NCBI GenBank assembly: GCA_025602915.1
Contig: JAHLJZ010000013.1
Span: 248,001-312,000, forward strand
Direction of reading: 5' to 3'
Length of the DNA: 64,000 bases
Source of the DNA: Paraphysoderma sedebokerense
Taxonomy: Eukaryota; Blastocladiomycota; Physodermatomycetes; Physodermatales; Physodermataceae
The notes under the pieces are model-generated. The model had not been told where the DNA came from and searched no databases. It saw nothing but the letters and a program-made list of their open reading frames with translations. Below are positions 15,004 to 64,000 of this stretch, piece after piece. How positions within the stretch are numbered: position 1 is the first letter of the stretch; every line of letters starts with the position of its first letter. The position numbers and the translations under genes are program-made.

Positions 15004-16332
15004 ATGAACACTAATCCTGGCCCTCAACTTCCTGGCCCTCCCGGAAATGGTCCTCCAATAGGGGGTCCTCCCGGCGGTCCTCCTGGGGGTCCTCCTGGGG
15101 GTCCTCCTGGGGGTCCTCCTGGTGGTCTTCCTGGGGGTCCTCCCGGTGGTCCTCCTGGTGGTAAGTATAGAGACAAATTTTCGACCAAAACAAAAAATAT
15201 TCACATTTAACGTTGCAATCTCGGTATGAAGGTCCCGTTCGTCCGCCACCAGGCGCTGCACCTCCCGGTGGTATGCCGCCAGGACAAGGTCCGGGACCGC
15301 AAAACCCTGGAGCGCCAATGCCGCCCGTCACCATTCCCGACACATCGAAACTCCCCTTCTGTCAGCCATGGGTACATTCAAAACCACTTTGATCTTCTAG
15401 CGTTGCGCTGAATCACACTAAAACTGTCTATGTTCTAGCAACCGAGTGCACAAGTTCTTGGAGCTCAAATGCCCCCATTTTTCATTTATGGATGCGTGCA
15501 ATCAGCTAATGGTTAGTTATTTATGGGCGATAAATTACGGAATGCCTGAAAACTATATTAATTTATCAATTACTTCATGTAGGATTCATATGTGATAGTT
15601 CAGCTCAGCCAAGTCAAAGTCCGACATGTAATATTCCGAATTGGAACAATGGATGTACGTGACTATGTTTAACCAATCTTCTAATGCGACATCAAGTAGA
15701 TGACTGACAACCTTGTTTTCACTTTGTTAATTTTGTCTCTTACAATTGTACGGTTCTGTTTCCGCAAAACGCTGCAGGTGTGAAGCAACCTTACGGCGTT
15801 CCCTTACCTCCAACTGCAGGAGGTACTCCGACCAGTCTTCAATTATGGGGTGAGTGTCCCTGCCGTCAAAATCTGCCATGTAATCTAAATTAACACAGTG
15901 TGAAAATCATTGTAGGATGTACTGGTCCAACTAATAATCTTCAGCAACTTCGATGCCGAGCTGATAGCGCAACGACGGATCCAGCCAGGCGGGGACCCGT
16001 TGGCGCCGATATACAATGTTTAAGTGGTTAGTCATACAATTACCATGTTTCCCTTGCCTCAACGATCGCCCCACATTGAACCTCTTCTTTCTAGCCCCAC
16101 CTCCAAATACTGCCTCACCCGAACCAAGCCCAACAGAGGACGTGGATAAAGCGTCATCTGGATCACACTCGCATAATATCGACGGATCAACGATCACACT
16201 GACCTATTTTGTCTCGGTGTGTATTTCACTCTCTCTCTCATGTTTCGGTTTTATTATGGAATACTCAAGATACTGACTGTTATACTTTAGCTTCTGACCG
16301 TTGTCACTTCCCTTCTGGGCTTCATGTACTAA
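15004..16332 (+). CDS. Gly-Pro repeat, Cys-containing, probably surface-anchored protein
   Basis: Eight exons (15004-15160, 15232-15371, 15439-15511, 15583-15654, 15778-15849, 15916-16026, 16095-16216, 16291-16332) give 262 residues. The N-terminal third is GPP/GGPP repeats. The middle holds a set of spaced Cys (PFCQPW, IYGCV, FICDSS, PTCNIPNWNNGC, LWGCTG, RCRAD, IQCLS), suggesting a disulfide-bonded extracellular domain. The C-terminus has a Ser/Pro-rich spacer and a final hydrophobic stretch (STITLTYFVSLLTVVTSLLG) with a very short end, as in GPI-attachment signals. I see no signal peptide at the first ATG, and no upstream exon that would supply one, so the N-terminus may be incomplete. I do not recognise the family. 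It is divergent from the KH gene, with 196 bp between starts. Confidence 0.72.
15061..15160 (+). repeat. 12-bp coding minisatellite (GGPP units)
   Basis: A run of about eight near-identical 12-bp units, consensus GGTCCTCCTGGG with silent changes, encodes Gly-Gly-Pro-Pro repeats (one unit has Leu for Pro). The array ends at the splice donor of exon 1, so length changes would keep both frame and junction. Confidence 0.85.
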
Positions 16333-39802: not shown

Positions 39803-41143
39803 ATGGATTACTATGGCAAAAGGCTCGCCACTTGCTCTTCCGATCGAACTATTAGATTATTTAATGTAGACGGAGAAACACAGACGTTAGTCGACACTTT
39901 GAAAGGGTATCGTTCACTGTTAAATCATTTCGTAGTTCTATTCATCGTTTTCAAAGAAATCTAATCATTTAATTGTTGTCTATTTTGAAAAACGGTAAAT
40001 GTTATTTGTTCTTTGGGCCATTCATTGTAGACACGATGGACCAGTCTGGCAGGTCGCTTGGGCACATCCTGTCTTCGGCAATCTTTTGGCATCTTGTTCT
40101 TATGATGGTAGAGTGTTTATTTGGAAAGAGACCAATGGAGTTTGGTCTAAGATTCATGAGCATGTTAAGCATACTGCCTCTGGTGAGTCGCAAATGTAGA
40201 ACGTCAGGTTATTTGTTGTTGATTGACAATGATTTCTACTATTCAACTGTTTATAGTTAACTCCATTGCCTGGGCGCCTCACGAACATGGTCTCATTCTT
40301 GCCTGTGCGTCATCCGACGGCAAAATTTCTATTTTATCTTATAGAGGTGCGTCATTCGTTGCTCTTGACGTCGAAAGTAAAGGAAATTGAAGCATGTCTG
40401 TATCGTTAGAGGACGGCACCTGGGACGATTCCATCGTTGTCGTTGCCCATGCTATCGGATGTAACGCTGTAACTTGGGCACCATCAGTCCAACCAGGTAG
40501 TTTAGTGTCAGGTTCTCCGGTTGAAGTCAACACGAAACGATTTGCCTCTGCTGGCTGCGATCACCTGATTAAAATTTGGGAGTGGAGGTTTGTATTCCCT
40601 TATTTTGCAATTCAAAATCCTTATAATATTAAGTTATAATCCTCGCCATTTTAAACTATAATCGTCCTACTGCAATTTAGTGAAGACACTAAAACATACG
40701 ATGCAGTCCATACTTTAAGTGGCCACGTCGATTGGGTTCGCGATGTGGCATGGGCCCCGAACATTGGTTTACCTTGTAATTATATCGCTAGCTGTGGCCA
40801 AGTACCCATATTTTTTCTCAACTTTCTCACTATGGAACGAGATGGAAAAACTTACCATCATTTTGCTGGACATTTACTATTATACAATTAGGACAAAGAG
40901 GTTTATATCTGGACTCAAGATTCCCCTCTATCAGATTGGACGAAACGTAAGCTTAAGGAAGACAAGTTCCCAGATGTAGTCTGGCGTGCGTCTTGGTCGC
41001 TCTCCGGTAATATTTTAGCGGTTAGTTGTGGTAATAATAAAGTAAGTTTATGGAAGGAAAATTTGGATGGAGATTGGGAATGCATCAACGAGTTGACAGA
41101 AGAAAGTGGAGTTGGTATCAGTGGTTATCAAGCCGGACAGTGA
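39803..41143 (+). CDS. SEC13: COPII coat / nucleoporin Sec13
   Basis: Exons 39803-39906, 40031-40182, 40257-40346, 40410-40587, 40681-40801 and 40892-41143 give 298 residues from the first in-frame ATG. Conserved WD-repeat blocks are [100 protein letters not shown] and [19 protein letters not shown]. Sec13 forms the outer COPII cage with Sec31 and part of the nuclear-pore Y complex, and a vacuolar complex in fungi. A short 5' coding exon is missing from this call (see upstream region). Confidence 0.94.
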
Positions 41144-42157: not shown

Positions 42158-45100
42158 ATGCCCCTTTATTCACTATATTTTCGCTTCTTCGTCTTGTCAG
42201 TCGTCCTCCTGTTCACGGTCACGGCAGTAGCATTGGACTATTCTCCATTCTATTTGAACGCCTCTTGGACGAACACTATCTCATCATTGACGACGATTGT
42301 GGACAGTGTATTCGACGAGAATATTAATGTTGTGTACATAGTGGATAGTCAATTCAAGGCATACCGACTTAACTACCATACACTGTCATCGCCTGTCACA
42401 AAAGATTGGTCGTCTGTTGTTGATTCAGGGATGAGGCCATGGTCGCATGAAAGGTAACAGTATTCTGTTCTGATGTGGAACTCAATGCGTCATTGCCTAA
42501 AATAAACTTATTTCGTTCTGCCTTTCTCGCACAGGATAACCAAGAATGCAGCCCAGAGCGTCAACCCCTACAGTCCGGAGGTTTTCTTAGCGGTAATAAG
42601 CTGTCGCTTTTCTAATAACACAAATCGGCCTTGTTAACAGATCCTGTGTCCTTTTCCTGACTTTAAAGACGTATTGTTATGATAGTAATGGTAAATCGAT
42701 TATCCGTGTTCATCGATTCGATCAGAATCTCAATCAGATATCATCGATGGCATATTCTTCTGTGGCGTTTGTCAGTGATTTTTTCGATGGACAGTATCGA
42801 AATCCGTAAGTATGGCATTTGATGAAGTGACGCGAGAAGTTAGCAAGCAGTATAACTTACCCAAATCGTCTTTTAGCCGACTGAAGCTGTATTTTGAATC
42901 GGCCAGCACTCTTCATGTCGCATTATTTCACGACGGTAGTAGAGGCAGAAATGCTTGGCTAGCGAAGATTAAAATAGCCTACGGTTCCAGTCCTTCCATA
43001 TCAAAGCTAGATGATAAAACATTGCCCGATGCCGCCGTCGCAATAGATTTCGGATGTAATAGCGGTTTTGTTTGCATTTGGACTACTACTAGAACTGTGA
43101 CACCGTACAGTCTTGCAGATTATTCGAAGGGAAGCTCTGTTACAATTGCGGCATCATCCAACGAAATCAATTATGATCCCGCGATGGAGAGATATGGCAA
43201 TGTGACGTTATATTTTCACCGCCAAATCAACGACACTACAAAACTGATCCTCCACAGTAAAAATACCTCGTTTAATTCATTGGCAGCAAATACTTTACCG
43301 TACAAGTATGACTTCCCAGTACAACTGAATACTGCCATTCAGATATCACAACTTGGAGTCGCGTGTGTCGGTTTCACGTCCAACAACATTGATTCTAGTC
43401 CCGGAAGAAGTTACGACATTATTATCCTGAGATATAATGCTTCTTTCTATCGTGCTTCAACAACTATCATATCCACAACGAAACAAGATAATCTCACTTT
43501 ATTAATTCCACGGACAACTAGCGATACATTTTCTGTCGTTGGGACGACTGACGGTTCCATTGATGAACCTGATGTAACTGCTTCAAAACCACGAGTCATA
43601 TTTCTCGCACATTTCCAGCCATTTAACATATCAAGTGTTCAACCAGCGCTTGTTGCTCCTGGCCAAGCCATTACGATCCAATTCTCTCAGCTGCCGCTAA
43701 ATGCTATATCTATGGGCTTCCCAAGAGTGGTATATAACGGTCAACAATGTACGGGCGTGGCATGGAATTCAAGCACATTAAGAGCGAATGTCGGTTCCGG
43801 TGTGGGAGGTAAATACGCATACGGGGAATCTAGCCGGGAACAGTAACTTAATGAATTCTAATTATAGGACCTTATGAGCTGTCCGTCACATTTGATTATC
43901 TTCCATTCAAACCGAGTGTTGTTGCAGATTCGATGTTAGCTTTCCAAGACCCTGTGATTTTGAATATAAGTCCTTCGGTTGGACCTGCTAGTAAGTCACC
44001 TCAATGATAGTTTAAAGAGACATTCTCAATGCTTACACTTTACGTGTCTTCAGGTGGATTTCCTATTAATATTACAATGGATCCTATCGGCAATGTGACG
44101 CAGCCTCTGGTCGTTAGTATTGGCGGAAGACCATGCGCAAATGTAGTTCAGACATCAAGCAATTCGTTGAGATGTAATGTTGGACCAGGCATGTCACTCT
44201 CTATCCAAATGCTTTTCTTTTGGCGCGCATCTAAACCATTAACTTATAGGCACCGGTCAAAATCATTCAGTTGTTGTGAGAATTGGTGCGAGTCAAAGCA
44301 ATGGCTCTGCCTTCATTTCCTATAATGCCCCTGTTCTAAGCCAAGTGGTGCCATCAGTTGGTCCTGCAGCAGGCAGCAATGAAGTCAATTTAACGTACTA
44401 TGTTATTTTACAATTTCTTGCTTATATGCTAACACCTCTCTAACTTTTGCATTGGATTGATGTGTAGCGGGACAAACTTTGGAACATGTTCATCCACAAT
44501 TCCTTGCTCTGCTGCCCCTAATTCTTGGGTGACCATCGGTGGCCAAAATTGCACAAATTTAACACTCTTCTCAGATAATCGTATGAGATGCGTTGCTCCA
44601 AGGGGAACTGGAACTAATAGAACTATTCGTTTAAGTATTAACGGGCAGGAAAGTAATGAGGTTTTGTATTCTTATGAAAGACCGAGCATTTCTGTTCTTG
44701 TCCCGCGAACTTCGGTGCAACCCGATCCAGTATGTCTAATGTGTCACCTTCGTTTAAACAACAAGATATTAACATTATCATAAGACAATTTACATAGAAG
44801 GTTTCAACTTCGGATTTGAAACAAGTAACATATTTGTTACTTTTGCGGATACAAATACGTCAATGGAGTACAATTGCACTTCATTTGTTTTAAGTTCAGA
44901 TAGTAGCATTCGTTGGTAAGAGTTGTTATTTCCTGAGGCACCATTCGTACCGCTGTTCATCCTGAATTGTCTCTTAAAAGTTACTTTGCCAACAATACAC
45001 TCCCTCTATTCGCTACATTCGATGTGACCATTATCGTATCGGGTCAGAAGAGCTTGTCTTCTAGCAGCAACAAATTTTACAGCGGAATACCGAACAATCC

Positions 45101-48100
45101 CCCAATCGCTTATCCATTCAACACCAGTGTCAATGAAGATCAATCCATCGTTGTCCAGTTGGAAGGCAGCGACCCGGATGCAGCCGATGCAGTCAAAATA
45201 TATGCTGTCAGCACACCACAATATGGGAACTTATACTATTATTTAGCGACATCTGTCGATCCGAAGGGACCACTAATAGATACGACTTTATGGCCCGTTG
45301 AATTGCCATTAGGGCGAGCGATTTACTTTCCGCCCGCTGATTACAACGGCGAAGATTCTTTCAACTTCGTAGTGCGCGATACATACAATGAGGGTGGGTA
45401 AAAAGAAGCGCTAAAATTACGAATGACTTCCATTCAAAATACTCATGTCCTTGTTTTACAGAGTCTACCATTGCATTTGCCAATATTTCAGTCTTACCGG
45501 TCAGCGACCCACCTGTTCCGATCCCATTCAGCGCCAACATCACCGAAGATACCGACCTGCTTCTTAATTTCACTCACTCGGATCCTGATTCTCCAGGAAC
45601 TTCAATTAGTATTATTGTTGTGACATTGCCTTCAGCGGGCCGTATTTTCGAAGTGGATAATAACTATGCGCCAATCACTGAAATCACCATCGTCCCTTTT
45701 CAATTATCTAATTTTACAAAAACTGTCATGTACAAACCGCCGTTAAATGCAGCTGGAACTGTCAACGGATTATCTTTTAAAGCCCGAGATGAGACTGCAA
45801 ATTCTTTAAATGCGGCCCAAGTCTCAATATTGATCACACCAATTAATGATGCTCCGATTGCTTTCAACAAGACTTATTCCATTGCAGAGGATTCGGCCAC
45901 CACCATATCGTTTGACTGCCAAGATGTTGATATGCAAGATTCATTAGTTGTAACAGTATTGTCCGTTCCACCACCGGAAGCAGGCATTTTATTAAATCCT
46001 GGTTTGAAATATAGAGCTCCGTGAGTGTTCGCTTTGCAGTTGGTATAACTTTTACCCCCATCTAATCAGAATCTATCCCAGTGTTTACGCAAATGATCCT
46101 GTTCCTGCGTCCCTGACTTTGGAACTTGCGAAGAATTATTACGGTCAATTCTCTATCGGTTACATGTGTAGCGACAGCAGTTTGTCCAGTGAAATCGCGT
46201 ACATCGATGTCGAAGTCACTAATGTAAACGATGCGCCCATGGCTTCATCAGGCATCGTTCTAACTGATGAAGATACTGATGTTTTATGTCAACTTAACGT
46301 GTCAGACGTGGAAACTCCTGACCAAATATCCATAACCATCCTGGATCTTCCGCGCCAAGGAATGCTTCTTGCTCAGATCAACGATACTGATCCGCTAAAT
46401 GACACATGGTCGGTTCTTACCTCTGACTTAATTCCGTGGACAATTCCGTTTTACCGAAAAAATTTGACTTTCCGGCCGACCGCCGATACACACGGTGATC
46501 CGTACGCCACGTTCACTTTCCGAGCTGACGATGACGTCGACAAGTCAAATTTCGCTACTATTAATGTGATTGTGAACTCTGTCAATGGTGCGTGTTGAGG
46601 CTTTAGTTTATTCATGGTAAACATCGACTTACTGGTATTCCCGATATAGATCCTCCCACAATAAACCTTACATCACTTGATATTTCGGCCTACGAAGACC
46701 AAGAAGTCGTAATAACATTAGATATTAAAGATGTGGATATGAATGATCGACTCGTAGTCAAGATCACTGACATCTTTGTTAACGGAACATTATTTCATTT
46801 TGACCGACGAACCAATTCACGGACCCAGTTGACAATTGGAGAAGGCAGTGAAATATCCGGACCGCCTTATGTTATCGTTTTCCGTCCCTCTCAGAACTTT
46901 TACAGTGAAACCGTAGAATCGCTCCAAAAATTCAATGTGACCTTCACTGATGCAACTGGTGCAGGATCATCACATTTAGTTAATTTTTCAGTTCTCCCAG
47001 TCAATGATGTACCGATCATCAATTGCGCATCAGATTCAATCGACCTTCCATTCAACTTTGTGAATGGGAGTGATGAAAAATTCAATTTCACTATTGGTGT
47101 AACAGATGTTGATGATGCTAATGTGACTCTGATGTTGGTCAATGCTCCTCGGTTGGGTTATTTGAGTGCAGACGGAAAAACACTTAAAGGAGGCAGTCAA
47201 TTTACAACAACTCAACTGTTCTTTTATGCGAACAACTCCGGGGGAGGATACCCATATTCAAATTTTTCGGTTTATGCTGTTGATGCAGCTGGTGCGGTGT
47301 CCAGTACTTGCACTTTTCAGTTTACATTTACTTGTCCACCTCGTAAGTTATCTTGAACAATCTTGTGTATTTTACTGTCATTCAGAATTGACCGTCTCTG
47401 AAGGTCTCTATAATAATATTTTTTCGGGTGGAAAAGGTCCAATTTGTACCGATTGTCCAGTGAGTTACCCTAGTCGTTTCTTTGTGCCTTTGCTGAAATC
47501 TAAATTGACTTATTCTTTCATAGGTCGGTTCTTTTTGCAGGTAAAGCTGTTTTCAATATATCTTTGATGTTGAAATCTTAAATATCTTTTTCTTACAGCC
47601 AAGACGGAAAACATAGGCCATATCCCAACTATGGCTGGTGGGAGAACACCGAAATCAACGCTTTCGTACCGTGCATACCAGTAAGTTCTGATTTGTCACC
47701 CACCTATAATCTAATGCTCGATTTAACGCAATAGATGAAGCCTGATGCTTGCCCAGGATCACAAATCCGATGTGCTGTAGGATATGAAGGGCCGCGCTGT
47801 GGTAAATGCGCAAGCGGATTTTACCGAATCTCTGGCTCTTGTAAATCCTGTGATACCGCTTTGCCTGATTGGGTTGTTCCAGTCGGGACACTTGGGGCAT
47901 TCGTCTTGATTTGTGCCATGTCGTTATTATTAAAAGGTGGCCCAAGGTGAGAATTCGAAGCGAAATACTGATCTATGCTGGATTCTAATTTCAATTCAAA
48001 TTTAGCGAAGGACTCTTGAATATACTGCTAAATTTCATTCAAACAGTGGCGTTGTTTGATCAGTAAGTGCAATTGAGATTGCCGATTTGTTATTCCCGTA

Positions 48101-49562
48101 TTAATACATTATGGTCCGAATCATAGGTTGCATTTTGACTTCTCTCCGGCCTTAAAAAACCTCGTCCAAGGATTCAATGGAATCGGCTATCTTAATATTG
48201 AACTCGCCGCCCCTGAATGCATCCTATCGAAGTATCAGTTTGCAGGAGCTTTGGATTACCGATTTAAATTCACCGTAATGGCCTGGTTGCCGCTGATCCT
48301 ACTTGGCATCGTAAGCACGTTTGCGATTCTCAATACGTATCCATTCCAGTCAGTACTGTGGCGGATTCAGAAATTTCTTGGTAGACGAGATTTTATTTCG
48401 TCAGAACTTCTGTATCATCATCAGAACAAGATGTTTGTCAGTTGTATCCAAGCATACAACACACTTCTAGGCATGATATATATTATCCTAGTCAACCAAT
48501 CAATAGCGTAAGTGTCATTTCCTCTTATCCAATTCGTTCGTTTGCACGAAGCCTCACAGAATTGGTTTCAGTATCTTTGATTGCAGTTTGGAACCAGATG
48601 GGCAATACTGGATGGACGAACAACCAGACTCGCTTTGTTACCAAGGTTGGTGGAGCGATTACGCCAACCTCGCCTATGTCGTTGTTGTCTTCTACATCAT
48701 CGGTAAACATCATTTTATATGCCTGCAAATAAAACTGTGCTGACCAGAAATCATTAGGAATTCCGTTATACTTTAGCGTCTTAATATTTTTATACTACCA
48801 AACCACATTCGTTGGAGGGCGATGGCTGCGGGCGAGAGAACATGCGGGACGAATGTTAAATGTTCGCAACAGCTACTTCAGGTCAAGTCATCAATTCTTC
48901 ATTGTAATCCAGTTGATAAGAAAACTATTTATTGTGGTTCGTGAATTTCATCCATCGGTTCTATGTGGCGTACAAAACTTCACTGAGCATTATTATTCTT
49001 AGATCGTTAAAATGTTTCTCACCAAATATTTGATCCTCCAAGCCGTGCTGACCTCTGTTATTCTATCAGTTGATGCCGTGCTGTCAGCTAAATATCTTCC
49101 TTATATATTTCAATCCCTCAATGCATTGGAAGTTGTTTGTACCCTTTCGGCCATTGTTATCATGAATGGGGCTCTCTTGTAAGTTGACTTTTTCTAATGG
49201 CTAACATTATTCTATGCTATATGTTAATCTGTATGATTTCTAGAATACATACCAATCAATTCAAGGAAGTCTCGCAGAAGGACGCTGCAGCGGCCATCAT
49301 CGCCACACTCATAATCTCGTGTGTAACAATTTCGATCTTCATGGTGGTAATTGAAGTCGCTACGCGTATAAAAAGATGGAGGGAAGCCAGGCAGGATTCA
49401 ACGGTTTTTGATGAAAAGATCTTGGCAAGCACACAGGTTGGAGGCACAATTAGCAGAATAAGATTGGGAAACACGACCTTTCTGAGGAAAGTGTTTGGCC
49501 TCACGGTTGGCGGCCCAATGGAACAATCATCGTTAAAAGCGAAACCAAGCATTAAAAGATAA
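42158..49562 (+). CDS. Giant receptor-like membrane protein, copy 1
   Basis: Twenty-three exons join in phase to 2001 residues. Order: signal peptide (1-25); N-terminal ectodomain with repeated DSVFDENINVVYIVDSQF-like and FHDGS blocks (about 26-400); an IPT/TIG-like Ig region (about 400-740; ISSVQPALVAPGQAITI, ILNISPSVGPASG, TGTNFGTC); four to five cadherin-like tandem-95 repeats (about 740-1465) with PINDAPIA, NVNDAPMA and PVNDVPII ends; a Cys-rich stalk (CPP..GPICTDCP, PDACPGS, CAVGYEGPRCGKCASGFYR; about 1465-1570); then seven or eight TM segments (about 1560-1940) with APECIL between TM1 and TM2; and a basic cytoplasmic tail. Many N-glycosylation sites. It is likely an adhesion or sensory surface protein; the function is unproved. 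Confidence 0.85.
44189..44249 (+). other. GC-AG intron in copy 1
   Basis: The donor is GCATGT at 44189 after CCAG, the acceptor TATAG at 44249. Copies 2 and 3 have GT donors (GTAAGT, GTAAAG) at the same codon. The GC call is the only one that joins NVGPG to TGQNHSV in phase. Confidence 0.8.
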
Positions 49563-50281
49563 AATGAATTTTAGACCATTCTCGGATTCAGTAATAACCT
49601 AATGCGATAATCAATTGGTATAGTATAGTGCGTACATGCAGTAATATTGGTTGGAAATCACTGGATTGCTACTATAATAATAATTACATAATATTAACTT
49701 AATATATATATATTCTTTATTGCCCCATATATAATCTCAGATTTGCCAGGTCTCTCAACTCATCAGAATCAAAGCCGAGTCTCGGCATACATTAACACCA
49801 ACGGAATCATTTAGAGGAAGCCATGAAGAGCGGAGAAACACTGCTGTGGACCTAGGCATCCCTCTCTGATTTGATTCCCTGACGCCAAAGCTGTTTTATC
49901 AGTAGGTGATATTCAGTATTCTTAGCTTGGAAATATTGATATATGTTGACTGATGCCCACTCTCGAGCGAATCTCTCGTTCTTTCGATGTTCCACTTCTT
50001 AACTCTCTCTCTCTTCTTGCAAGTTATTATTCATGGTCGGTTGAACAAGAAAACTTGTCAAACTATGCATTTAAATTGTAGACAGTCTGCGGGAAAAGCA
50101 GCGCAGGGGGCGTTTTCGACTGATCGACAGATCGACGGCGATCAACCCAGGGAACGCGTCGTGAACATTGAAGGGAGCAACTACATACGTGCAAATCAAG
50201 TATCAAAGAATCACTAGGAGTTCTGTGCATACAAGCGTATCCTGACATCACAGTCACATTCAAGTTGAATGTACCCTCGCA
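49563..50281. other. Spacer between giant-gene copies 1 and 2
   Basis: About 0.72 kb with no coding sequence I can support. It should hold the copy 1 polyadenylation region (AT-rich near 49675-49710) and the copy 2 promoter. Confidence 0.5.
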
Positions 50282-53200
50282 ATGTCCACTCTACGACTTT
50301 ATTTTCGACTGGTCATGATTTGGCTTTGTCTCCTCTATGCTCTGCCAACAGCACGAACGAATCCTTCCCCTTTTTACTTGAATGCGACTTGGACAAACAG
50401 CCTTTCAAACTCCGATACAATTATCGCCAGTGCTTTCGACGACTCTATTGGCGTCGTCTACATGCTCGATAGTCGATTTGTCGCACATAGATTAACATAC
50501 TACACGCTTACTGCCTATAACAGCAGAAATTGGTCTTCTATTGTTGATTCAGGAATGTTTCCATGGCTTGAAGACAGGTATATAGTTCATTACATTGAAA
50601 TTTGATATTAAATATTCCAAGTTAATTACAACTGTACGCATCTAAATTCTTCAGGAGAACTAAGAATGCGGTCTTAGCAGTCAATCCTTACAGTTCGGAA
50701 CTATTTTTAGCGGTAATACATTTAGATTCGATCAAATGAAAATATGATAATTAATTATCAGAAATTTTTATCTAATAGACGTATTGTTACAGCGATTGCA
50801 AATCTACCTTAAGAGTTCATCGCTTCTTTGCAAATTTAACCCAAATCGGAACACCCGCGATATATGAAGGGAAAGACTGCCGAATCTGCTTAAATGGAAT
50901 ATGCCGTCTTGATTCAGTCCGTCCGCCAACTTTCTTTGATAGACAATATCAGAATCCGTGAGTATGATAAGTTTTGAATTGTGAGCAGCCATGCAGCCAG
51001 ACGACACACAGTCTGGAACTAACCCACTATCTTTTCTAGCCGAATCAAGCTGTACTTCGAATCAGGCGAACAACTTCATATTGCTTTATTTCATGACACC
51101 CGCGACGTCAGAAGCACTTGGTTAGCCAAGATAAGGATCTCGCATTCCACACTCTCACGACAGTTAGACGTAGTTTTGCAACATTCCGCCTTCGCCATTG
51201 ACTTTGGATGTAAGAATGGTGTCGTCTGCATTTGGACGAGCCCTAGAGTTGTTATGGAGTACAACCTTCAGAATTATTCCCAACAAAGCGCAGTCACAAT
51301 AAACGCTACATCTACTCCAGTTCAGTATGACCCAGCGATCGAAAGATTCGGAAATCTAACATTCTTTCTTAACTGGCTACAAAGTGGTTCTAACCAACTA
51401 ATTGTACACAGTAAAAACACCGCACATGGTTCATTGGCGGCGGAAATGCTACCAATTAGACAGGGCTCTCCAACCCAAACTAATATCGCTTTAGGAATGT
51501 CGCTTGGAGGATCTCTGTTCGCCGGTTTCACCACGAATCTTACACAGTCGAGCGGCAGTAGTGGTTTTGACATTGCCATTTCAAGATATGATTCTTCCCT
51601 TCAGCTCCTCTCAACTACTGTGCTGTCTACAGTTGGCCAAGATAACCTATCATCGGTGATTCCACGAATTAATAACGACGGATTCAGTGTTGTTGGGACA
51701 ACTGATGGTTCATTAACCCAAACGAATGCAACTACATCAAGGTCACGGGTTTTCTTCGTAGCGCATTTCATTCCATTTTCGATTTCGAATGTGAGGCCAC
51801 GTACAGTTGCTCCGGGACAAACGATTGAAATTCGATTTGCGCCCTTTCCGCTAAATGCTACTGTTGCTGTTTCCACAAATCTTCCTAGCGTGATATTTAA
51901 TGGTCAGAGATGTACCAATACATTTTGGAATGGAAGTTCTTTGAACACCACTGTCGGCTCGGGGGTGGGAGGTAAATAGGCACAATAATCAAACTATTGT
52001 ACGGCGCTAAATTTAAATATTGCAATCTTAGGGCCTTACGAGCTCGCCGTGATTTTTGATTATCTTCCCTTTCGACCAAGTGTTTTTAACAATAGCATCT
52101 TATCCTTTCATCCTCCCATCGTGGTGAATGTAGCTCCATCCGTGGGGCCGGCTGGTAAGTTGTCTTGTATATAGTCCGAACGGAAATCATTAAACCCGAT
52201 CTAACAGTAAGTCCTTTTAGTTGGATATTCCGTTAATATTGAATTCATACCAATCGGTAATATGACTCAGAGTTTGGCCGTTGAAATTGGTGGAAGAACG
52301 TGTGGGAATGTCGTTTCAGTTGATAGACTATTAAGATGCACTCTACCTCCCGGTAAGTTGCAAGAATCAACCATTTCTATTCAACTCTACTTTATTAATC
52401 TTGGTTTTAAATAGGCACCGGCCGAAATCATTCTGTTGTAGTAATCATTGGAGGAGTGCGAAGCAACGGATCTGTCTTCGTATCTTACGAGGCCCCCATT
52501 TTAAGCCAAATTGTTCCACCCATTGGTCCCACTGCCGGTAACAACATAGTCAATCTAACGTCCGTCGAAATTTTCTTTTTCTCATAGCTCCTCTGTATAC
52601 TGACCGATCATATGCTTTAAACCAGGGGCGCGAATTTCGGAATTTGCTCATCTTTTACATGTATACCACCCCCTAACTCCTGGGTGACCATCGGTGGGCA
52701 ACTTTGTGGGAACTTGACAGTTTTCTCGGACAGCCGTCTGAGCTGTATTGCGCCAAGCGGAACTGGATTTAATCGGACTGTCCGTTTAAGCATTGATGGG
52801 CAGGAGAGCAATCAACTTTTCTACACTTACGGCAGACCTGAAATCTCAGGTCTTGTCCCTAGATCTTCAATTCAACCGAACCCGGTAAGTCTACTCCCGC
52901 TAATTTGCCCACTTATTCGGTCCTTTATAACGGCGTCGACAGGCAATTTACGTAGAAGGGATCAACTTCGGGTCTGATTCCAAAGTTATTTCCGTGAAGT
53001 TTGTCAACGTAGATAATTCGCTTGAATACCGTTGCCCCATTTTAATATTGAATTCGGACAGTAATCTTCTCTGGTAAGTCTTATCACTTGTTCCAGGTAT
53101 TGTGAAGACAAAAACCTCAGTCGATTTTTTTGTTCAAAAAAGCCAATTTGGAAATCAAACTATTCCCCTATTCGCCGAGTTCGATGTAATCATAACTGTT

Positions 53201-56200
53201 TTAGGCCAATCGAGCTTGCCATCCAGCGGTAGCAAATTTTACAGCGGAATCGCCAACAATCCGCCAGTTGCTTATCAGTTCAAAATAACAACAAACGAAG
53301 ATGAGGCAGCAATTATTCATTTGAAAGGCAGCGATCCCGATGATGGGGATACAGTCAGAGTTTTCGCAGTCAATACGCCGCAAAGGGGAGATCTATACTA
53401 TTACTTACCTACATCAATCAATCCCAGAGGGCCTCGCATAGATACATCCTTATGGCCAATTGAGCTGCCGTTCGGGCAGGCGATTTACGTGCCCGCACCT
53501 GATTTTAACGGAGAAGACTATTTCTCCTTCATCGTGCGGGACAAATACAACGCAGGTTGGTGCATTCGAGGATGTCATCTAACCTGATTGTCATTTGCAA
53601 CAACTAACGGCTGCCATCTTTAGAGTCTTCCCTGACATATGCAAACGTTTCGGTTTTACCCATTAGTGATCGCCCTGTTGCCAGTCCGTTAAACGTCACC
53701 ATTACTGAAGACAACGACGCAATCCTTAATTTTACTGCCTCTGATCCAGACTCTCCTCTCTCTACAATAAGCATTATCATCATGACATTACCTTCCGCAG
53801 GCCAAATATTTGAGCTAGATCATGAACATAAACCGATCTCAGTCATTTTCAACGTTCCCTTTGAATTGTCCAATAAAACAAAAAGCGTTATGTACAAGCC
53901 GCCTCTAAATTCAGCCGGTATTGTCAATGGGTTATCGTTCAAAGTGCGAGACGACACAGCAGATTCTTTGAACGAGGCGCAAGTCACAATTGTCATTGAA
54001 CCCGTCAATGACGCTCCGACGGCTTCCAATAAGACGTATGCGATCCTGGAGGATTCAGTTACTACCTTATCATTTGAGTGCTCAGATGTCGATGTCGGGG
54101 ACAGCTTATCTGTATATATCGAAACGGTTCCGCCATCGGAAGCAGCAAATCTATTCATTCCAGGTTCAAGATTTAAAGCACTGTACGTTATTTTAAGTCA
54201 CTGAAAATATAAATGTTTTTACCTAATGCTGTCGATTTCTAGCGTTTACCCAAGCGATATTGTTCCTGCGTCTTTAACATTAGAACTTGCGCCAAACTTT
54301 CACGGCGACGTGTCTATCGGTTACCGGTGTAGCGACGGCCTCTTGTCGAGTGAAGTTGCATACATCAATGTGCAAGTCGCTAATGTGAACGACGCGCCAA
54401 CTGCTTTATCTCGGACCGTTGTGGCGGAAGAAGATACTGAGACCTCAATTCAACTCTCTGTATCAGATTTTGAAACTCCTGACCGACTTTGGGTTACGAT
54501 CCTGGACCTTCCTCGACAGGGGATCTTGCTTGCACAAACCAACAACACTGATCCTCGAAACGACTCATGGGCAGTAATTACCACTAATATGGTTCCGTAC
54601 ACGCTGCCTTTTTACAGAAGAAATTTGAGTTTCCGCCCAGTTGCAGATACACATGGTGACCCTTACGCAGCGTTCACTTTCCGCGCTGACGATGAGGTCG
54701 ATGAGTCAAATGTTGCCACTATTAATATCAAAGTAAATCCCGCCAATGGTGAGTATTAATGCTTCACTGTACCGTTTCAACCATCGAGCTACTTAATATT
54801 GCCAACATAGATCCTCCCACGATTAATCTTACATCTCTAAACATCTTGGCGTATGAAGACCAAGAAGTTGCCATTACATTAGATATTTATGATGTGGATC
54901 TGAATGATCGGTTGTTGGTTAAGATAACTGATATTTCTGTTAACGGAACATTATTATTTCATTTTGATCGACGAATCAATTCTCGGACCCAGTTGACAAT
55001 TGGAGAGGGCAGTGAGATATCAGGCCCCCCTTATGTTGTGGTTTTCCGCCCTTTTCGTGATTTCTTCAGCGAAACCGAAGAATCGCTCCAAAAGTTCAAC
55101 GTGACCCTCGCAGATCTATCTGGTGCTGGCTCGTCCCACCGAATCAGTTTCTCGGTTCTTCCAGTAAATGATGCCCCAATTATCAATTGCGTAACGAATT
55201 CAATTGAACTCCCATTGGAATTTTTGATTAAAAATTTTACAACACTCAATTTTGACATTGAATTAACGGATCCTGATGATACCAACGTGAATCTGGTTTT
55301 GGTTAACGCTCCTCGACTGGGTCACTTGACAGCTGACGGAGTGATTCTTGCGGAGGGCAGTCAATTTACCTCCACTCGGTTGAACTTCCAATCAAACAAT
55401 TCAGGAGGGGGATTTCCGTACTCAAATTTTTCACTGTATGCGATCGACGAGACTGGTGCAGTGTCCAATACTTGTACTTTTCAGTTTACATTTACTTGCC
55501 CTCCTCGTAAGTATCATCCTTAACATCAGACATCGCAATGACTGAATTAATAGAAGCATTTCCGCAGGTCACTATAACAACATATTTTCTAATAATGAAG
55601 GACCGATTTGTAGCGCCAATTGTCCGGTGAGTTATCTTTATATTTCCACCTACTTCACTGGGTTTATGCTGACATATCAGTCTTTCCGTGATAGGCTGGC
55701 TCTTTCTGCAGGTAAGTCTACCATAAAATATGTCTTCTACTGATAAAATCATATTGATTGGATTGTATTTTCTTTCCAGCCACGACGGAAGGCACAGTCC
55801 AATTCCAAATTCCGGCTGGTGGAAGAGTGATTACAGCAGCGCTTTCGTGCCTTGCATACCAGTAAGTTTGGCTAATTCTCCCAATAAATTCCTGGAATAA
55901 GTACAGTAACACTATTCGAAAGCCTGACGCTTGCCCAGGGTCTAAAACGCTTTGTGCTGTGGGATATGAAGGACCTCGGTGTGGTAGATGTTCACAGGGA
56001 TTTTATCGTATTTCTGGCACTTGTAGATCATGCGATACCGCTTTGCCAGATTGGTTGATATTAGCGGGGACTATTGGAGCCTTCGTTTTGCTTGGTGCCG
56101 TTTCGTTAGCATTGAAAGCTGTCCCAAGGTGACGATTATAAAGAATGTATATATTTCGCCGGCGCTAATTCTCATTTAATCTTAGCGAAGGATTAGTGAA

Positions 56201-57725
56201 CATTTTACTCAATTTCATTCAGACGGTTGCGCTGTTCAACCAGTATGAGCTATTTAATTCTATATCTAGCTGCTGCCGATTCTGACAGAATTCTATCACA
56301 TACAGGCTGAACTTTCAAGAGTACCCTGACTTGAAGCGTCTAATTGAAAACTTTAATAATGTCGGTTATCTGAATATTGAATTTGCGGCGCCCGAATGTA
56401 TCCTCTCGCAATATGAATTTATTGAATCCTTCGATTACCGATTCAAATTTATCGTGACGGCTCTACTTCCGCTGATATTTCTTGTCATTATAAATTTAAT
56501 CGCTGTCCTCAATACTTACCCGATTCTGTTGGTATTTTACCGGATGCAGCGTTTTGTGACTGGAAGAGATCGTATTACCTCTGATCAATTGTATGAACGT
56601 CAGAACACGATGTTCGTTAACTGTATTCACGCATACAATACCCTTCTAAGCATGATATATATCATCATAGTCAACCAAACAGTCTCGTCAGTATCGATAC
56701 GAAATATTATTCATTGCTTGCGTTAACTAAGCTTTACCGATTTTTCGTTTTGTAGAATGTTTGATTGTAGTAAAGAGCTAGATGGACAATATTGGATGGA
56801 CGCTCAACCCGACTCACTCTGCTATCAAGGTTGGTGGTTGAATTACGCGAATCTCGCATATGTAGCGTTGGCTATTTATGTCATCGGTGAGTAAAACTCT
56901 CGTTAGATGTTGATGGCATATTGCTGATAATACTTGATCTAGGTATTCCATTTTACTTCTGCATCTTGATATTTCTGTACTATCAGAACTTTTTCCTTGG
57001 TGGAAGATGGATGGAGGCCAGGGAATACGCAGAAAGAATATTGAATGTCCGAAAGAGCTACTTCAAAGTAACGCACCAGTATTTCATCGTCATTCAGTTA
57101 TTACGAAAGCTCTCTATCGTGGTAAGTTCTCCTGCAAACTAGGGTATCCTGAGAGTAATCAGGCCAACTGAGATTGTTTGCGATTGTGTTTCTAGTTCGT
57201 CAAGGTTTTCTTCACTAGATATTTGATCCTACAAGCTGTACTTTCGTCCGTCATTTTGTCCATCGACGCGGTATTATCAGCCAAATATCTTCCATACGTT
57301 TTAAAATCCCTCAACGCATTAGAAGTCATTTGTACCCTTTCCGCCATTATCATCATGAACGGAGCGCTTTTGTGAGTCTTGCTGGCTTGCGACTTTACAT
57401 TGCCTTTGTATTGACCTTTACGGCTCTTAGGATCCACACAGATCAATTCGAGCGCGGTACGGCACAGCGGGACATTGCAGCGGGGATTATCGCTTCTTTG
57501 ATAATCGGTTGCGTCACCGTATTGATTATAATGGTAATCAAGGAGATAGTCGTGCGCATCAGGAAGTGGCAGGAAGCAGACAAGAACTCACATATTTTCG
57601 ATGAAAGTATCCTGGCAAGTGCTCAAATTGGTGGTTCCATTAGCAGGCGAAAATTGAAGGATACCACCTATCTAAGAAAAGTTCTTGAGCAAGCCGTTGT
57701 CGCTACAGAGGAATCGACAAATTAA
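50282..57725 (+). CDS. Giant receptor-like membrane protein, copy 2
   Basis: The exon plan parallels copy 1 and every junction I checked keeps phase, giving about 2,000 residues. The signal peptide is MSTLRLYFRLVMIWLCLLYALPTA. All regions are present: N-terminal ectodomain, IPT/TIG-like Ig region, tandem-95 repeats (PVNDAPTA, NVNDAPTA, PVNDAPII), the Cys-rich stalk (GPICSANCP, CAVGYEGPRCGRCSQGFYR), APECIL and the multi-TM domain, ending VATEESTN. It is the most divergent copy in the first tandem-95 repeat, but close to copy 3 in the exon around 54900-55050. An exon at 50781 onward has extra Cys (KDCRICLNGICR) absent from the other copies. One intron uses a weak donor (GTCCGT near 52560). It looks intact. 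Confidence 0.83.
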
Positions 57726-58117
57726 AGCCAAGTAATTAATTTTGATTATACGTGATCCATAACAGTTTAGATTAAATGTAATTGCGTTAGTTTCATTAAT
57801 ATTTATGTTACTTTAAATTGGTGATCTTCATCTCTGACAATGGGGCGGAGCCTGTTTATCTTTGCAAGTGGCAACGAGAGTGCAACGAGGTCAACGAATG
57901 TACGCGGTGGGAGGCATTATATATTGGAAGAAGTCCGCGACCGAGATACCGAGTCTCCGTAGTCCGTCATCCGTGTCTCCGAAGTCCAAAAGCAACAAGA
58001 CTGAGAGCTACCAAGGATCCAAATTCCAAGAGTCAAGAACATTTCAGTTATTGAAGTGGCATATTAAATTTCGCTCTTTGTTGAGAATTTAGGAACCACC
58101 CTTTTCCCCCTTATTGA
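57726..58117. other. Spacer between giant-gene copies 2 and 3
   Basis: About 0.39 kb. It includes a TATA-like ATTATATATTGG near 57917 and a stretch at 57935-57995 with repeated CCGAG/CCGT-type words. It should hold the promoter of copy 3. No gene is visible. Confidence 0.5.
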
Positions 58118-61100
58118 ATGTTGCTGCCTCATATTACAACAATCGCAATGCACCTCCACCTGTACCCACTACATCTCCACCTTTCCATTGGCTTTCTTTG
58201 CTTTCTGGCTACCTTGCCCCCGGTACTATCGGATTATTCCCCTTTCTACATGAATGCAACGTGGACAGGTGACATCTCATCGTCGACGACCATTATAGAC
58301 AGTGCTTTCGATATCTCAAATAATTTAGTATATATATTGGACAGTCAATTTAAGGCGTACAAAGTTGACTATTATACATTATCCTTGACATCCACGAAAG
58401 ATTGGTATTCTAATGTTGATAGTAAGATGTTGCCATGGTCTCACGAAAGGTAATTATAATGCGGCTACCTGGAAAACCAAAGCCGAATGGTTGATGTCAA
58501 ACTCAAAATTCACTCTCTTTGCCAGGAAAACGAAGAACGCGGTTTTGAAAGTGAACCCTCACAGCTCGGAATTGTTTTTAGGGGTATATATTTCCCTCTT
58601 TGCCCAGTTGAGAGAAGCAGCAATGTTGCTGACTGCGCTTTGTTTTCCATCCAAAAGACGTATTGTTACGCCGGCTCCGGAACTTCAATTCTCATGATCA
58701 ATCGATTTGATATGAATTTGAATCGAATCGGTAGTTCCGTCACGTATAATTATAATTCAGGCATTTTTTTCTTGAACCAGCATCCCAACCCGTAAGCGTT
58801 ATGACCGAATTTTTATTAATCGATAGAACCATATTAACCATTACAGCTGTGCTACATTCTAGGCGCATCAAGCTATTTTTTGAATCGCGCGAAACACTTC
58901 ATGTTGCTTTCTTTCACGATGATAGTAACAACAAAAATACGTGGCTGTCGAAAATAGATATAAATTACCTGTCCGGCAGCACTAGTGCTTCAATGGCGAA
59001 GATAAAAGACAATCCAGTGCAAATCCCTGCAGTTGCCATAGACTTTGGGTGTAAGGGGGATGCAGTTTGCATCTGGGCAGATTCCAGGTCTGTGACGGAA
59101 TACAGGCTTCTAGATTATTCGCAGAGAAGCAAAAGTACAATTGATTCTTCAGCGATACCTATACTGTATGACCCAGCAATTGATCGATTCGAAAATACAA
59201 CATACTTCCTCCATCGAAAAATCAGCGACAACAGCAAGTTAATAGTACACAGTAAAAATATAACGTTCAATACCACGGGTGCCGATATGTTACCGTTCAT
59301 GTATGACTTCCCCGCACAAATCAATATCGCCTTAGGCACATCTGCTAGTGGGTCGGTTTTTGTGGGTTTCACATCCAACATAACCAATTCAACTCTCAAT
59401 AGCTACGACATCATCGTTTCTCTGTATGATCCTTCAGTTCGCCGCCTATCAACCACAGTAATGTCGACGGTTAAACAGGATAATCTCTCATTACTTATTC
59501 CTCAAAGCAATGGCGACAATTTCGGTGTTGTGGGTACATCGGACGGTGATGTGAATGATCCCAAACTAGCTACTTCAACTTCACGAATCATGTTTCTTGC
59601 GCATTTCCAAGCAATACGCATAACGGATGTTCAGCCTGCCATTGTTGCTCCGGGCCAAAGCATTGTGATTCAATTTTCACAACTCCCCCAAAAAGCTACC
59701 ACTACGGGTTTTCCCATAGTGAAATTTAACGGCCAACTGTGTACAAACGTAACGTGGAATTCACAAGCATTAAGGGCTACTGTCGGCTCAGGCGTGGGAG
59801 GTAAATAAATATGCATACTGCGTTTACACCGCCATGTAGATCAATAATATTATATTCATAGGACCTTACGAGCTATCAGTGAGATTTGACTATATCCCAT
59901 TCACACCTAGTGTTGCTACGGATACTATGTTATCTTTCCAGGATCCTGTAATTTTGAACGTAAGCCCTTCTGAGGGCCCTGCTAGTATGTCGCTTTAATT
60001 AACCAAACCACGCAGATTGGGATTTCTTTATTGACTGTGTGTTTAGGTGGATTTCTTATAGATATTATAATGAATCCTATCGGTAATATGGTCCCCTCTT
60101 TGGTTGTTAAAATTGGCGGAAGACTATGCGCCAGTGTGATTCAAACATCAGACAGTTCTTTGAGATGTACTGTGGGTGCAGGTAAAGTGCACGCCTGTAC
60201 GCAACTCTCAACTTGTACGCCATTAAGTAGATTGGCTATAGGTACCGGTCGGAATCACTCTGTTATAGTAGCGATTGGAGCGAGCCAAAGCAATGGATCT
60301 GTCTCCATTTCCTATAATGCTCCAATTTTATACCAAATTGTACCTTCTTTGGGCCCTGTAGCAGGCAACAATGAAGTAAATCTAACGTATGATGATTTAC
60401 CAATCACAATTTCACTCCTTCTCCAACCTAACTGGCCTTATACTATCGGAACAGAGGTGTTAACTTCGGAACCTGTTCAACTGGGATTCCATGTACTCCA
60501 GCAGCTGACTCTTGGGTGACCATCAATGCGAAGAACTGCACAAACTTAAAGCTCTTTTCGGATAATCGGCTCACCTGTATCGCACCCAGTGGTGTTGGCA
60601 TTAATCATACTGTTCGTCTCAGCATTGATGGACAGGAAAGTAATGCTGTTTTGTATTCGTACGAAAGGCCTCGTATTTCGGTTCTGGTCCCAAGAACCTC
60701 GGTTCAACCCAATCCAGTAAGTTGGATATATTGTATATCTGTGTCATAGACTGGTCTTTAACCATATATAAGACGGTTTATATTGAAGGTTTCAACTTCG
60801 GATTTGATGCTAGCAACGTTTCCGTTGACTTTGCGCAAGTCAATACCACAACGTTGTTCTCTTGTCCTAATGTTACATTGACTTCTGATAGCAATCTCCG
60901 GTGGTAAGTGCAGTCGTCTGCTCTCTAAATTCTGCCAACTTTGATCTCCCCTTCCTAACCTGTGCTGCCAAAAGTGAATTTGGTAGTGTCAACATTACGC
61001 TGTCCGCCGAATTCGATGTGTCAATTACCGTTTTCGGGCAAAAAAGCTTCCCTTCTAGTAACAGCAAATTCTACAGTGGAATTACAAACAACCCCCCAAT

Positions 61101-64000
61101 CCCTCATCCATTCAATACCAGTGTTAATGAAGATCAATCCATTGTTGTCCAGTTGGAAGGCAGCGATCCAGACGCCGCCGACGCAGTCAAAATATACGTT
61201 GTGAGCACCCCACAACTTGGGAGTTTGTACTACTATTTGGCGACATCGATAGATCCCAAGGGACCCCTAATAGATACATCTTTATGGCCCGTTGAATTGC
61301 CTTTAGGGCGGGCGATTTACTTTCCCCCTCCTAATTACGACGGAGACGATTATTTTTCATTCCTAGTGCGCGATACCTACAATGCTGGTGAGTACTTAAG
61401 AGCGCTTAGTATAAACCACAAGTGTTGATTTCTAAAGCTCGTTTACTGTCAGAGTCTGCTATTGCTTTCGCAAATATTTCAGTTTTACCTGTCAGCGATC
61501 CGCCAGTTCCCGATCCGTTAAACATCACCATCGTAGAAGATAGCGACCTACTTCTTAACTTCACTGTCTCGGATCCTGATTCGCCAGGAACAGCTATTAG
61601 CATTACTATTGTGACGTTACCTTCGGCGGGTCGTCTTTTTGAGGTGAATGATAACTATGCTGCAATCAATGAAATTGCGAGCGTCCCCTTTGAACTGTCT
61701 AATTTCACCAAAACCGTCATGTACCAACCGCCGTTAAATGCGATTGGCGTCGTCAATGGATTATCATTTAAAGCGCGAGATGAGACGGCAAATTCTTTAA
61801 ATGCCGCCCAGGTTTCACTGTTGATCACTCCAGTTAATGATGCCCCGATTGCTTTCAACAAGAATTATTCTATCTCAGAGGATTCCGTAGTTACCATATC
61901 GTTCGACTGTAGTGATGTTGATAATCAAGATCAGTTATCAGTATATGTGGATTCAGTCCCGTCACCGGAGGCCGGCAACTTATTCATACCAGACCTGCGA
62001 TACAATCCACTGTGAGTCTTAAGGTCATGATCACTGTATTAAAATTTCTCTGATTCTAACATAATTCTTTTGCAGTGTGTACCCATATGATCGTGTTCCT
62101 GCGTCCATAACCTTGAAACTTGTCACAAACTTCTATGGCGACTTCTCTTTCGGCTACCGATGCAATGACGGCATACTGTCCAGTGACTTGGCCTACATCA
62201 ATGTTGAAGTCCTTAATGTTAACGATGCGCCCATCGCTTTATCAGGAACCGTGCTAACTGAGGAAGACAATGATGTGTTAATTCAACTTAACGTGTCAGA
62301 CGTGGAAACCCCTGACCAAATATCAATAACAATCCTGGATCTTCCAAGCCAAGGGACCCTTCTTGCTCAGACTAACGACACTGATCCTTCAAATGATTCT
62401 TGGACAGCTTTAACATCGGAAGTCATTCCCTGGACGATGCCATTTTACCGAAATAATCTGACTTTTCGACCTATATCTGATACATACGGTGATCCATATG
62501 CAGTATTTTCCTTTCAAGCTGACGACGGTGTTGACAAATCGAATATTGCTACCGTGACAATGAAAGTACTCACAATCAACGGTGGGTTTCTCTATTTAGC
62601 ACTCCAATATACTTTATTCCCTACATTACTTACTCCCATTCATAGATCCTCCTGTCCTGAACCTCACATCTCTAAACATTTTGGCGTTTGAGGATCAAGA
62701 AGTCGCAATCACATTTGATATTCAAGATGTCGATTTGAATGATCGGTTGTTGGTTAAGATAACTGATATTTCTGTTAACGGAACATTTATTTCACTTCGA
62801 TCGACGAACCAATTCTAGGACCCAGTTGACAATTGGAGAGGGCAGTGAGATATCAGGGCCACCTTATGTTGTCGTTTTCCGTCCGTATCAGGATTTCTAC
62901 AGCGAGACTTCTGATTCAAAACAAACATTCAATGTTACCGTTACCGATTTATTAGATGCTGGCTCGTCCCATCTGGTCAATTTCTCAGTTCTCCCCGTTA
63001 ATGATGCACCAATCATCAGTTGCGCGTCGAATTCAATCGAACTTCCGCTTGACTTAATGATTGAACCATATGGAATGCATAACTTTACTATTGCAGTAAT
63101 GGATGTGGACGATGCTCTAGTGACACTTGTTCTTGTTAAGGCTCCTCAGCACGGATATTTGAGTGCGGACGGCGCAACAATCAAAGAAGGGAGTCAATTT
63201 ATATCAACCCAGCTATTTTTTCATTCCAACAACTCAGGAGGCGGTTACCCATATTCAAATTTTTCGATATATGCAGTTGATGAAGTTGGTGCTTTGTCCG
63301 ATACATGCACATTTCAGTTTACCTTCACTTGTCCACCTCGTAAGTTATTGTTCGACCAGGAATGAGTAAAATTCAGTCTGAATTGGTATAATCTGTAGGT
63401 CTCTATAACAATATTTTTTCCGGAGGAAAAGGACCAATTTGCAGTGAATGCCCCGTGAGTAATCATCAATATTGGTTTGTCTTCTTCGCGTCAAAGCTGA
63501 CATTTTCCCCATAAATTGTAGACTGGCTCTTTCTGCAGGTAATTATATGCAAGCTATTTTTGAGTCATTTAGCAACTACAGAGTCTGAACTTTTTCTCAA
63601 TTTGCAGTCATGACGGAAAGCTTGCTCCACATCCGAATTACGGTTGGTGGAAAAACAACGAAGTCAACGCTTTCATACCGTGCATACCGGTAAGTTTTTA
63701 TATTTGAAAATATATTTGATTTGGTATCTTAACGGATACGTTGAAGCCGGAGGCTTGTCCGGGATCAGAATTGGAATGTAATATAGGGTATGAAGGCCCG
63801 CGCTGTGGAAAATGCTCAAATGGCTTCTACCGAATCTCGGGTACCTGTAAATCTTGCAAAACCGCTTTGCCGGACTGGGTTGTTCCGATTGGAACCATTG
63901 GCGTCTTTGTTTTGATTTGTGCCATGTCTTTAGCGTTGAAAGGAGGTCCAAGGTGGAATTCTTGAAGCACAGAGCCTAACTTATGCCAACGCTAACAACA
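58118..64000 (+). pseudogene. Giant receptor-like gene, copy 3, frameshifted and cut by window end
   Basis: It is co-linear with copies 1 and 2 from the signal peptide (MHLHLYPLHLHLSIGFLCFLATLPPVLS; ATG at 58118, alternative 58148) through the IPT/TIG-like and tandem-95 regions to the Cys-rich stalk and TM1 (PDWVVPIGTIGVFVLICAMSLALKGG), then runs off the window. Near 62785-62790, after ITDISVNGT, the frame is one base out relative to copy 1 (or two bases short relative to copy 2), leading to TAG at 62816-62818. Downstream the original frame stays open and well conserved to the next donor, so the lesion is either recent, a sequencing error, or avoided by unrecognised splicing. All other junctions examined are in phase. 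Confidence 0.75.

What the first reader, a model, noticed from the sequence alone, without database searches (positions are those of the whole stretch)
42158..64000. Tandem array of three giant adhesion/receptor-like proteins
Each product combines a signal peptide, IPT/TIG-like Ig domains, cadherin-like tandem-95 (NDAP) repeats, a Cys-rich GCC2/GCC3- or ephrin-receptor-like stalk and seven or eight TM segments. This ectodomain-plus-polytopic layout is seen in protists and animals and is rarely discussed in fungi. Tandem copies with diverged ectodomains suggest a family diversifying for surface recognition, adhesion or mechanosensing.
Basis: partly seen in the sequence, partly recalled or inferred. 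Interest (0 to 1): 0.85.

Follow-up and report, generated by a model that had tools for sequence, protein, structure and literature searches.

The report
Giant adhesion-type TRP-like receptors in fungus
An alga-infecting fungus carries three neighbouring genes, part of a family of roughly 85-90 copies, for very large surface proteins that join a many-domain, adhesion-type outer part to a membrane part resembling a calcium channel, which makes them candidates for how its swarming cells feel and recognise what they touch.

Summary
The window is Paraphysoderma sedebokerense (Blastocladiomycota, parasite of green algae). Three tandem genes reconstruct as 23-exon models of 1997 and 2003 residues (copies 1 and 2); copy 3 runs past the window and has a reading-frame change. 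Public models are fragments (254, 259, 596 residues). The products have a hydrophobic leader, an unassigned N-terminal part, IPT/TIG domains, cadherin-like tandem-95 repeats, a Cys-rich stalk and a membrane domain of probably nine helices. Tail matches occur at 93 loci on 44 contigs, alleles probably included. Stalk plus membrane unit is homologous to uncharacterised proteins of Thecamonas and Ostreobium; three relatives match PF06011, the fungal TRP-like (Flc/Pkd2) family, below its cut-off, while the window genes do not. I read them as adhesive receptors fused to a TRP-like channel, not adhesion GPCRs or single-anchor wall proteins. Channel activity and ligand are inferred. dN/dS is 0.08-0.27 where computable (15 of 18 comparisons), so diversifying selection is not shown.

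The parts
42158..49562 (+). Copy 1, whole gene, 23 exons, 1997 aa
   Evidence: spliced model; C-terminal 254 aa identical to BKA69DRAFT_167154
42158..43675 (+). Copy 1: hydrophobic leader (residues 8-26) and unassigned N-terminal domain (to residue 430)
   Evidence: hydropathy; no Pfam family over cut-off; coordinates by arithmetic from the exon list
43676..45071 (+). Copy 1: IPT/TIG region (residues about 431-770)
   Evidence: Pfam TIG, 4 stretches, 96 bits in all; region bounds are mine
45072..47342 (+). Copy 1: cadherin-like tandem-95 repeats (residues about 771-1463)
   Evidence: Pfam Cadherin_4 5 stretches 99 bits, Big_9, Ig_SibA; region bounds are mine
47404..47851 (+). Copy 1: Cys-rich stalk, with a 17-nt micro-exon at 47524-47540
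   Evidence: cysteines invariant in 8 tails and nearly so in 19; DUF7630 weak
47867..49562 (+). Copy 1: polytopic membrane domain (nine helices proposed) and basic cytoplasmic tail
   Evidence: (model of paralogue P0010)
50282..57725 (+). Copy 2, whole gene, 23 exons, 2003 aa
   Evidence: C-terminal 259 aa identical to BKA69DRAFT_167627
58148..64000 (+). Copy 3, cut by the window end (it would end near 65587 if the window numbering were carried on); reading-frame change in the tandem-95 exon relative to copies 1 and 2
   Evidence: public model BKA69DRAFT_167776 (P0003) starts downstream of the frame change

Best explanation
These are giant surface receptors with the N-terminus outside. A glycosylated ectodomain (N-terminal domain, TIG and cadherin-like Ig-fold repeats) stands on a Cys-rich stalk joined to a nine-helix, TRP-like (PF06011, Flc/Pkd2-type) membrane domain with a basic cytoplasmic tail. 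The most likely mechanism is that contact of the ectodomain with the algal wall, sister cells or substrate pulls on the stalk and gates cation (calcium) entry in wall-less amoeboid swarmers before encystment. Shown: architecture, family size, homology of the stalk plus membrane unit across eukaryotes. Predicted: topology. Suggested: distant membership of the TRP-like superfamily. Inferred: channel activity, mechanical gating, ligand and life stage.
For: Domains. Topology: 8 hydrophobic segments in copies 1 and 2; nine long helices in a 13-sequence AlphaFold2 model of paralogue P0010, pLDDT 76.9, pTM 0.70; in copy 1 the loops placed inside plus the tail carry 27 K+R, the outside loops 5. N-glycosylation sites: 39 in the copy 1 ectodomain against a shuffle mean of 19.6 and maximum 32 of 500, 2 after it; copy 2: 34 against 17.9 (maximum 28), 1 after it. 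TRP-like link: P0012, P0013, P0014 match the tail of a C104 paralogue at E 2e-29, 4e-27, 8e-15 and PF06011 at 3e-4, 1e-5, 6e-6 in the membrane region; a family member on C98 has a PF06011 exon match at 9e-4. Positions identical in all 19 tails (15 Paraphysoderma, 4 others), in copy 1 tail numbering, include Q132, C170, P194, Y307, G310, P312, P402. By analogy: fission-yeast Pkd2 is reported to pass calcium on membrane stretch (PMC12028594, passages). P. [quoted passage not shown]
Confidence: 0.5

Rival explanations
1. They are adhesion or wall-sensing receptors whose nine-helix domain signals or anchors without conducting ions.
For: The PF06011 link is distant and no solved fold matched the model significantly (inconclusive). 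A short member on C104, with cadherin-like repeats and no TIG seen in its sequence by eye, keeps the same stalk and membrane unit, so the membrane unit is the fixed part.
Against: Residues inside the membrane helices are kept across Paraphysoderma, Thecamonas and Ostreobium, which suggests more than anchoring; relatives fall in an annotated channel family.
Confidence: 0.27
2. They are adhesion-GPCR-like receptors: a large ectodomain on a seven-helix G-protein coupled domain.
For: Large adhesive ectodomain and polytopic C-terminal part; TIG domains are reported in Salpingoeca Adhesion-family receptors (PMC3251606, passages). The hydropathy script found 7 segments in the copy 3 tail.
Against: No GPCR or GAIN/GPS family in the Pfam scan of copy 1 or of 8 tails; 8 segments in copies 1 and 2, nine long helices in the model.
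Confidence: 0.04
3. They serve self recognition or a surface coat (swarmer aggregation, mating, encystment on sister cells) rather than host recognition, whatever the membrane domain does.
For: A large family with a faster-diverging tip would fit this too; propagules are described as aggregating and as attaching to sporangia (PMC6446968, passages).
Confidence: 0.19

Closest known systems
Fungal TRP-like family PF06011 (Flc1-3, S. pombe Pkd2)
   Same: polytopic membrane domain; relatives of the tails match the Pfam model in the membrane region, below cut-off; a clear PF06011 gene exists in the same genome on C94
   Different: copy 1 and 8 tails do not match the model; giant TIG/cadherin-like ectodomain and Cys-rich stalk
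AMSG_09799 of Thecamonas trahens (P0001) and the PF07699/PF06011 protein of Ostreobium quekettii (P0013)
   Same: Cys-rich stalk plus membrane domain homologous over 390 and 431 aligned columns
   Different: ectodomains differ: Laminin_G and weak cadherin-like in Thecamonas; no TIG or cadherin-like match listed for Ostreobium; both uncharacterised
Polycystin-1 of animals (recalled comparison)
   Same: layout: long Ig-fold ectodomain on a polytopic, TRP-related membrane part
   Different: no PKD, REJ, GPS or PLAT match in the Pfam scan of copy 1; no sequence homology tested or shown
Adhesion GPCRs
   Same: large adhesive ectodomain; TIG domains known in Salpingoeca members
   Different: no GPCR or GPS match; helix number differs

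Membership tests
PF06011 TRP-like (Flc/Pkd2) | match to the PF06011 profile | tested here: inconclusive
   copy 1 and 8 tails: none. Of 7 other proteins, P0012, P0013, P0014 match at 3e-4, 1e-5, 6e-6 and P0009 at 0.033, all under the cut-off; P0001, P0010, P0011 do not. C98 exon 9e-4 in the genome search but E 1.1 as a spliced tail; C104, C50 and C122 pieces none
PF06011 TRP-like (Flc/Pkd2) | about nine membrane helices, N-terminus outside (recalled) | tested here: met
   prediction only:
PF06011 TRP-like (Flc/Pkd2) | ML-like lipid-binding domain before the membrane part (recalled) | tested here: not met
   no such Pfam family listed for copy 1 at E up to 1
PF06011 TRP-like (Flc/Pkd2) | calcium conductance or calcium homeostasis role | not testable with these tools
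   needs experiment
PF06011 TRP-like (Flc/Pkd2) | shared solved fold | tested here: inconclusive
   no significant PDB match of the model
Adhesion GPCR | GPCR membrane domain and GAIN/GPS in Pfam | tested here: not met
   no match (copy 1) or (8 tails)
Single-anchor fungal wall adhesin | one membrane or GPI anchor | tested here: not met
   eight hydrophobic segments after the ectodomain in copies 1 and 2, seven in copy 3
IPT/TIG and cadherin-like (tandem-95) domain proteins | Pfam TIG and Cadherin_4/Big_9 over cut-off | tested here: met
   copy 1: 96, 99 and 68 bits against 20.9, 25.1 and 23.6; TIG exon over cut-off in each copy; of the pieces scanned, one of copy 1 and one of copy 3 are over cut-off for a cadherin-like family, copy 2's one such piece is 25.0 against 25.1
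Polycystin-1 | PKD, REJ, GPS and PLAT domains (recalled) | tested here: not met
   none listed for copy 1

The most novel reading that the evidence does not exclude
A fungal lineage with wall-less amoeboid swarmers has built its contact sense from force-gated channels: a family of some 85-90 genes, each fusing a variable adhesive ectodomain to one conserved nine-helix TRP-like unit, an independent counterpart of polycystin-1, used to recognise host alga and kin.
Probability: 0.28. Interest if true: 0.85.

Novelty: new variant of a known kind. Interest (0 to 1): 0.62.

Why it matters
How amoeboid and flagellated fungal propagules recognise a host surface looks open: recognition of Haematococcus is reported to involve heat-stable sites on the host (PMC6446968, passages), and no receptor was named in the passages I saw. 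This family offers testable candidates. Public gene models break the window's three genes into pieces, so domain surveys of annotated proteins may undercount the family. It also carries a stalk-plus-TRP-like unit found in Thecamonas and Ostreobium into a fungus, which bears on how adhesive receptors came to be coupled to channels.
Full report
What is there. The three genes are real. The public database names the organism through proteins on a contig of the same length, 437,519 bases: Paraphysoderma sedebokerense, a blastocladialean fungus. My spliced models give copy 1 at 42158-49562 (23 exons, 1997 residues) and copy 2 at 50282-57725 (23 exons, 2003 residues). Copy 3 starts at 58148 and ends near 65587, reached with contig sequence beyond the window. 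The last 254 and 259 residues of copies 1 and 2 equal the public models BKA69DRAFT_167154 and 167627; the public model for copy 3 (596 residues) starts in the tandem-95 region. In the databases I saw these genes only as pieces. Copy 3 shows a reading-frame change in the tandem-95 exon relative to copies 1 and 2; I left it as found and used its two sides apart.

Architecture. In copy 1 Pfam gives TIG (4 stretches, 96 bits), Cadherin_4 (5 stretches, 99 bits), Big_9 (68 bits) and Ig_SibA (55 bits); a TIG exon match over the cut-off lies in each of the three copies. The first 430 residues have no family over cut-off. The copy 1 ectodomain has 39 N-glycosylation sites against a shuffle mean of 19.6 and a maximum of 32 in 500 shuffles, and 2 sites follow it; copy 2 has 34 against 17.9 (maximum 28), and 1. 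The stalk carries cysteines invariant in 8 paralogues. Copies 1 and 2 show a hydrophobic leader and eight further hydrophobic segments; the same script gave seven for the copy 3 tail. A ninth helix (the segment around GLLNILLNFIQTVALF) appears in the AlphaFold2 model of paralogue P0010, built from 13 sequences, mean pLDDT 76.9, pTM 0.70; I count nine long helices there, besides shorter ones. With nine helices and the N-terminus outside, the predicted inner loops and tail of copy 1 hold 27 K+R and the outer loops 5, as expected for that orientation.

Family. Searching the genome with two tails gave exon matches that I grouped, from the rows listed in both calls, into 93 loci on 44 contigs. One search did not list all its matches and both calls scored only the best candidates, so families of this size are undercounted. 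On the other side, six pairs of loci on different contigs have identical scores and may be alleles, so some 85-90 distinct copies is my estimate. Of 42 spacings between neighbouring loci, 20 lie between 7 and 9 kb, about the size of the window's genes. Of the 93 loci, 53 have a TIG match 1-6 kb upstream on the same strand, against about 0.007 expected per locus if TIG matches lay at random; 61 of the genome's 74 listed TIG matches are assigned this way and 13 are not. A short member on C104 has repeats, stalk and membrane unit and, by eye, no TIG. A tree of 19 tails groups the three window copies with one on C57 (support 1.0), and the two C37 copies with each other (1.0), as expected of local duplication.

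Relatives and the membrane domain. The first search (copy 1, membrane region) found one protein, from Thecamonas trahens, E 7e-8; profile comparison gave 99.5% over 390 columns. The 8-tail alignment found six proteins, all Paraphysoderma. The C104 query found seven: four Paraphysoderma, an unnamed 1457-residue protein with a cadherin-like domain, one from the green alga Ostreobium quekettii and one unnamed JGI protein. Profile comparisons of the last three with the 8-tail alignment gave 99.7-100%. These three (P0012, P0013, P0014) match PF06011, the TRP-like family that includes fungal Flc and Pkd2, at E 3e-4, 1e-5 and 6e-6, below its curated cut-off, in the membrane region; P0009 matches at 0.033; P0010, P0011 and P0001 do not. 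In the genome, PF06011 finds one clear gene on C94, plus weaker exon matches on C122 and C98. The C98 gene is a family member with a full tail, but that spliced tail scores only E 1.1 against the model, and tails from C104, C50 and C122 do not match. A comparison with the organism's own Flc reads in a sensible register but 4 of 120 decoys score at least as high. I put the TRP-like link at about 80%: it rests on intermediate relatives, not on the window genes. PDB fold searches gave nothing significant, which leaves the fold question open.

Evolution of the three copies. Copy 1 against copy 2: N-terminal domain 52% identical, TIG 60%, tandem-95 67%, stalk 75%, membrane core 67%, tail 49%. Copy 1 against copy 3 (pieces, without the exon of the frame change): 53%, 68%, 76%, 77%, 81%, 84%. 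dN/dS lies between 0.08 and 0.27 in 15 of 18 comparisons, many with saturated dS; in 3 dS could not be estimated. There is no sign of positive selection at this level; the far end of the ectodomain changes faster than the rest of the ectodomain.

Mechanism. Fission-yeast Pkd2 is reported to pass calcium when the membrane is stretched (PMC12028594, passages). P. [quoted passage not shown] attachment is visible 30 minutes after inoculation (PMC7912770, passages). A family that ties faster-changing adhesive ectodomains to one conserved TRP-like unit would fit a contact sensor. That step is inference; the same family could serve kin recognition, wall sensing or encystment.

Novelty. The parts are known and the stalk-plus-membrane unit has uncharacterised relatives in other eukaryotes, so this is a new variant of a known kind. 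The searches listed in Tried and rejected showed me no paper describing the family.

Noticed in passing
window 62700-62870: Copy 3 changes reading frame within the tandem-95 exon relative to copies 1 and 2, and the public model begins downstream of it; assembly error, extra intron or broken gene.
   Followed up: partly
window 44189-44249: Copy 1 appears to use a GC-AG intron where copies 2 and 3 use GT-AG.
   Followed up: no
window 47524-47540, 55695-55711 and 63522-63538: A 17-nt micro-exon in the Cys-rich stalk is kept in all three copies.
   Followed up: no
whole assembly (G000): Several contig pairs (C57/C128, C41/C97, C54/C103, C109/C117, part of C13/C151) carry matches with identical scores, suggesting unmerged alleles.
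   Followed up: no
L063 (C122:26001-29500): A gene with a DUF7630-like stalk and a weak PF06011 exon match that aligns poorly to the family; possibly a distant cousin.
   Followed up: partly
window 5139-6218: Open reading frame with a glycosyl transferase group 1 domain.
   Followed up: no
window 15061-15162: Tandem repeat of a 12-base unit, 8.5 copies.
   Followed up: no
window 40391-41143: Frames upstream of the array read like WD40 repeats of a Sec13-type protein (recalled resemblance; the one piece scanned had no Pfam match).
   Followed up: no
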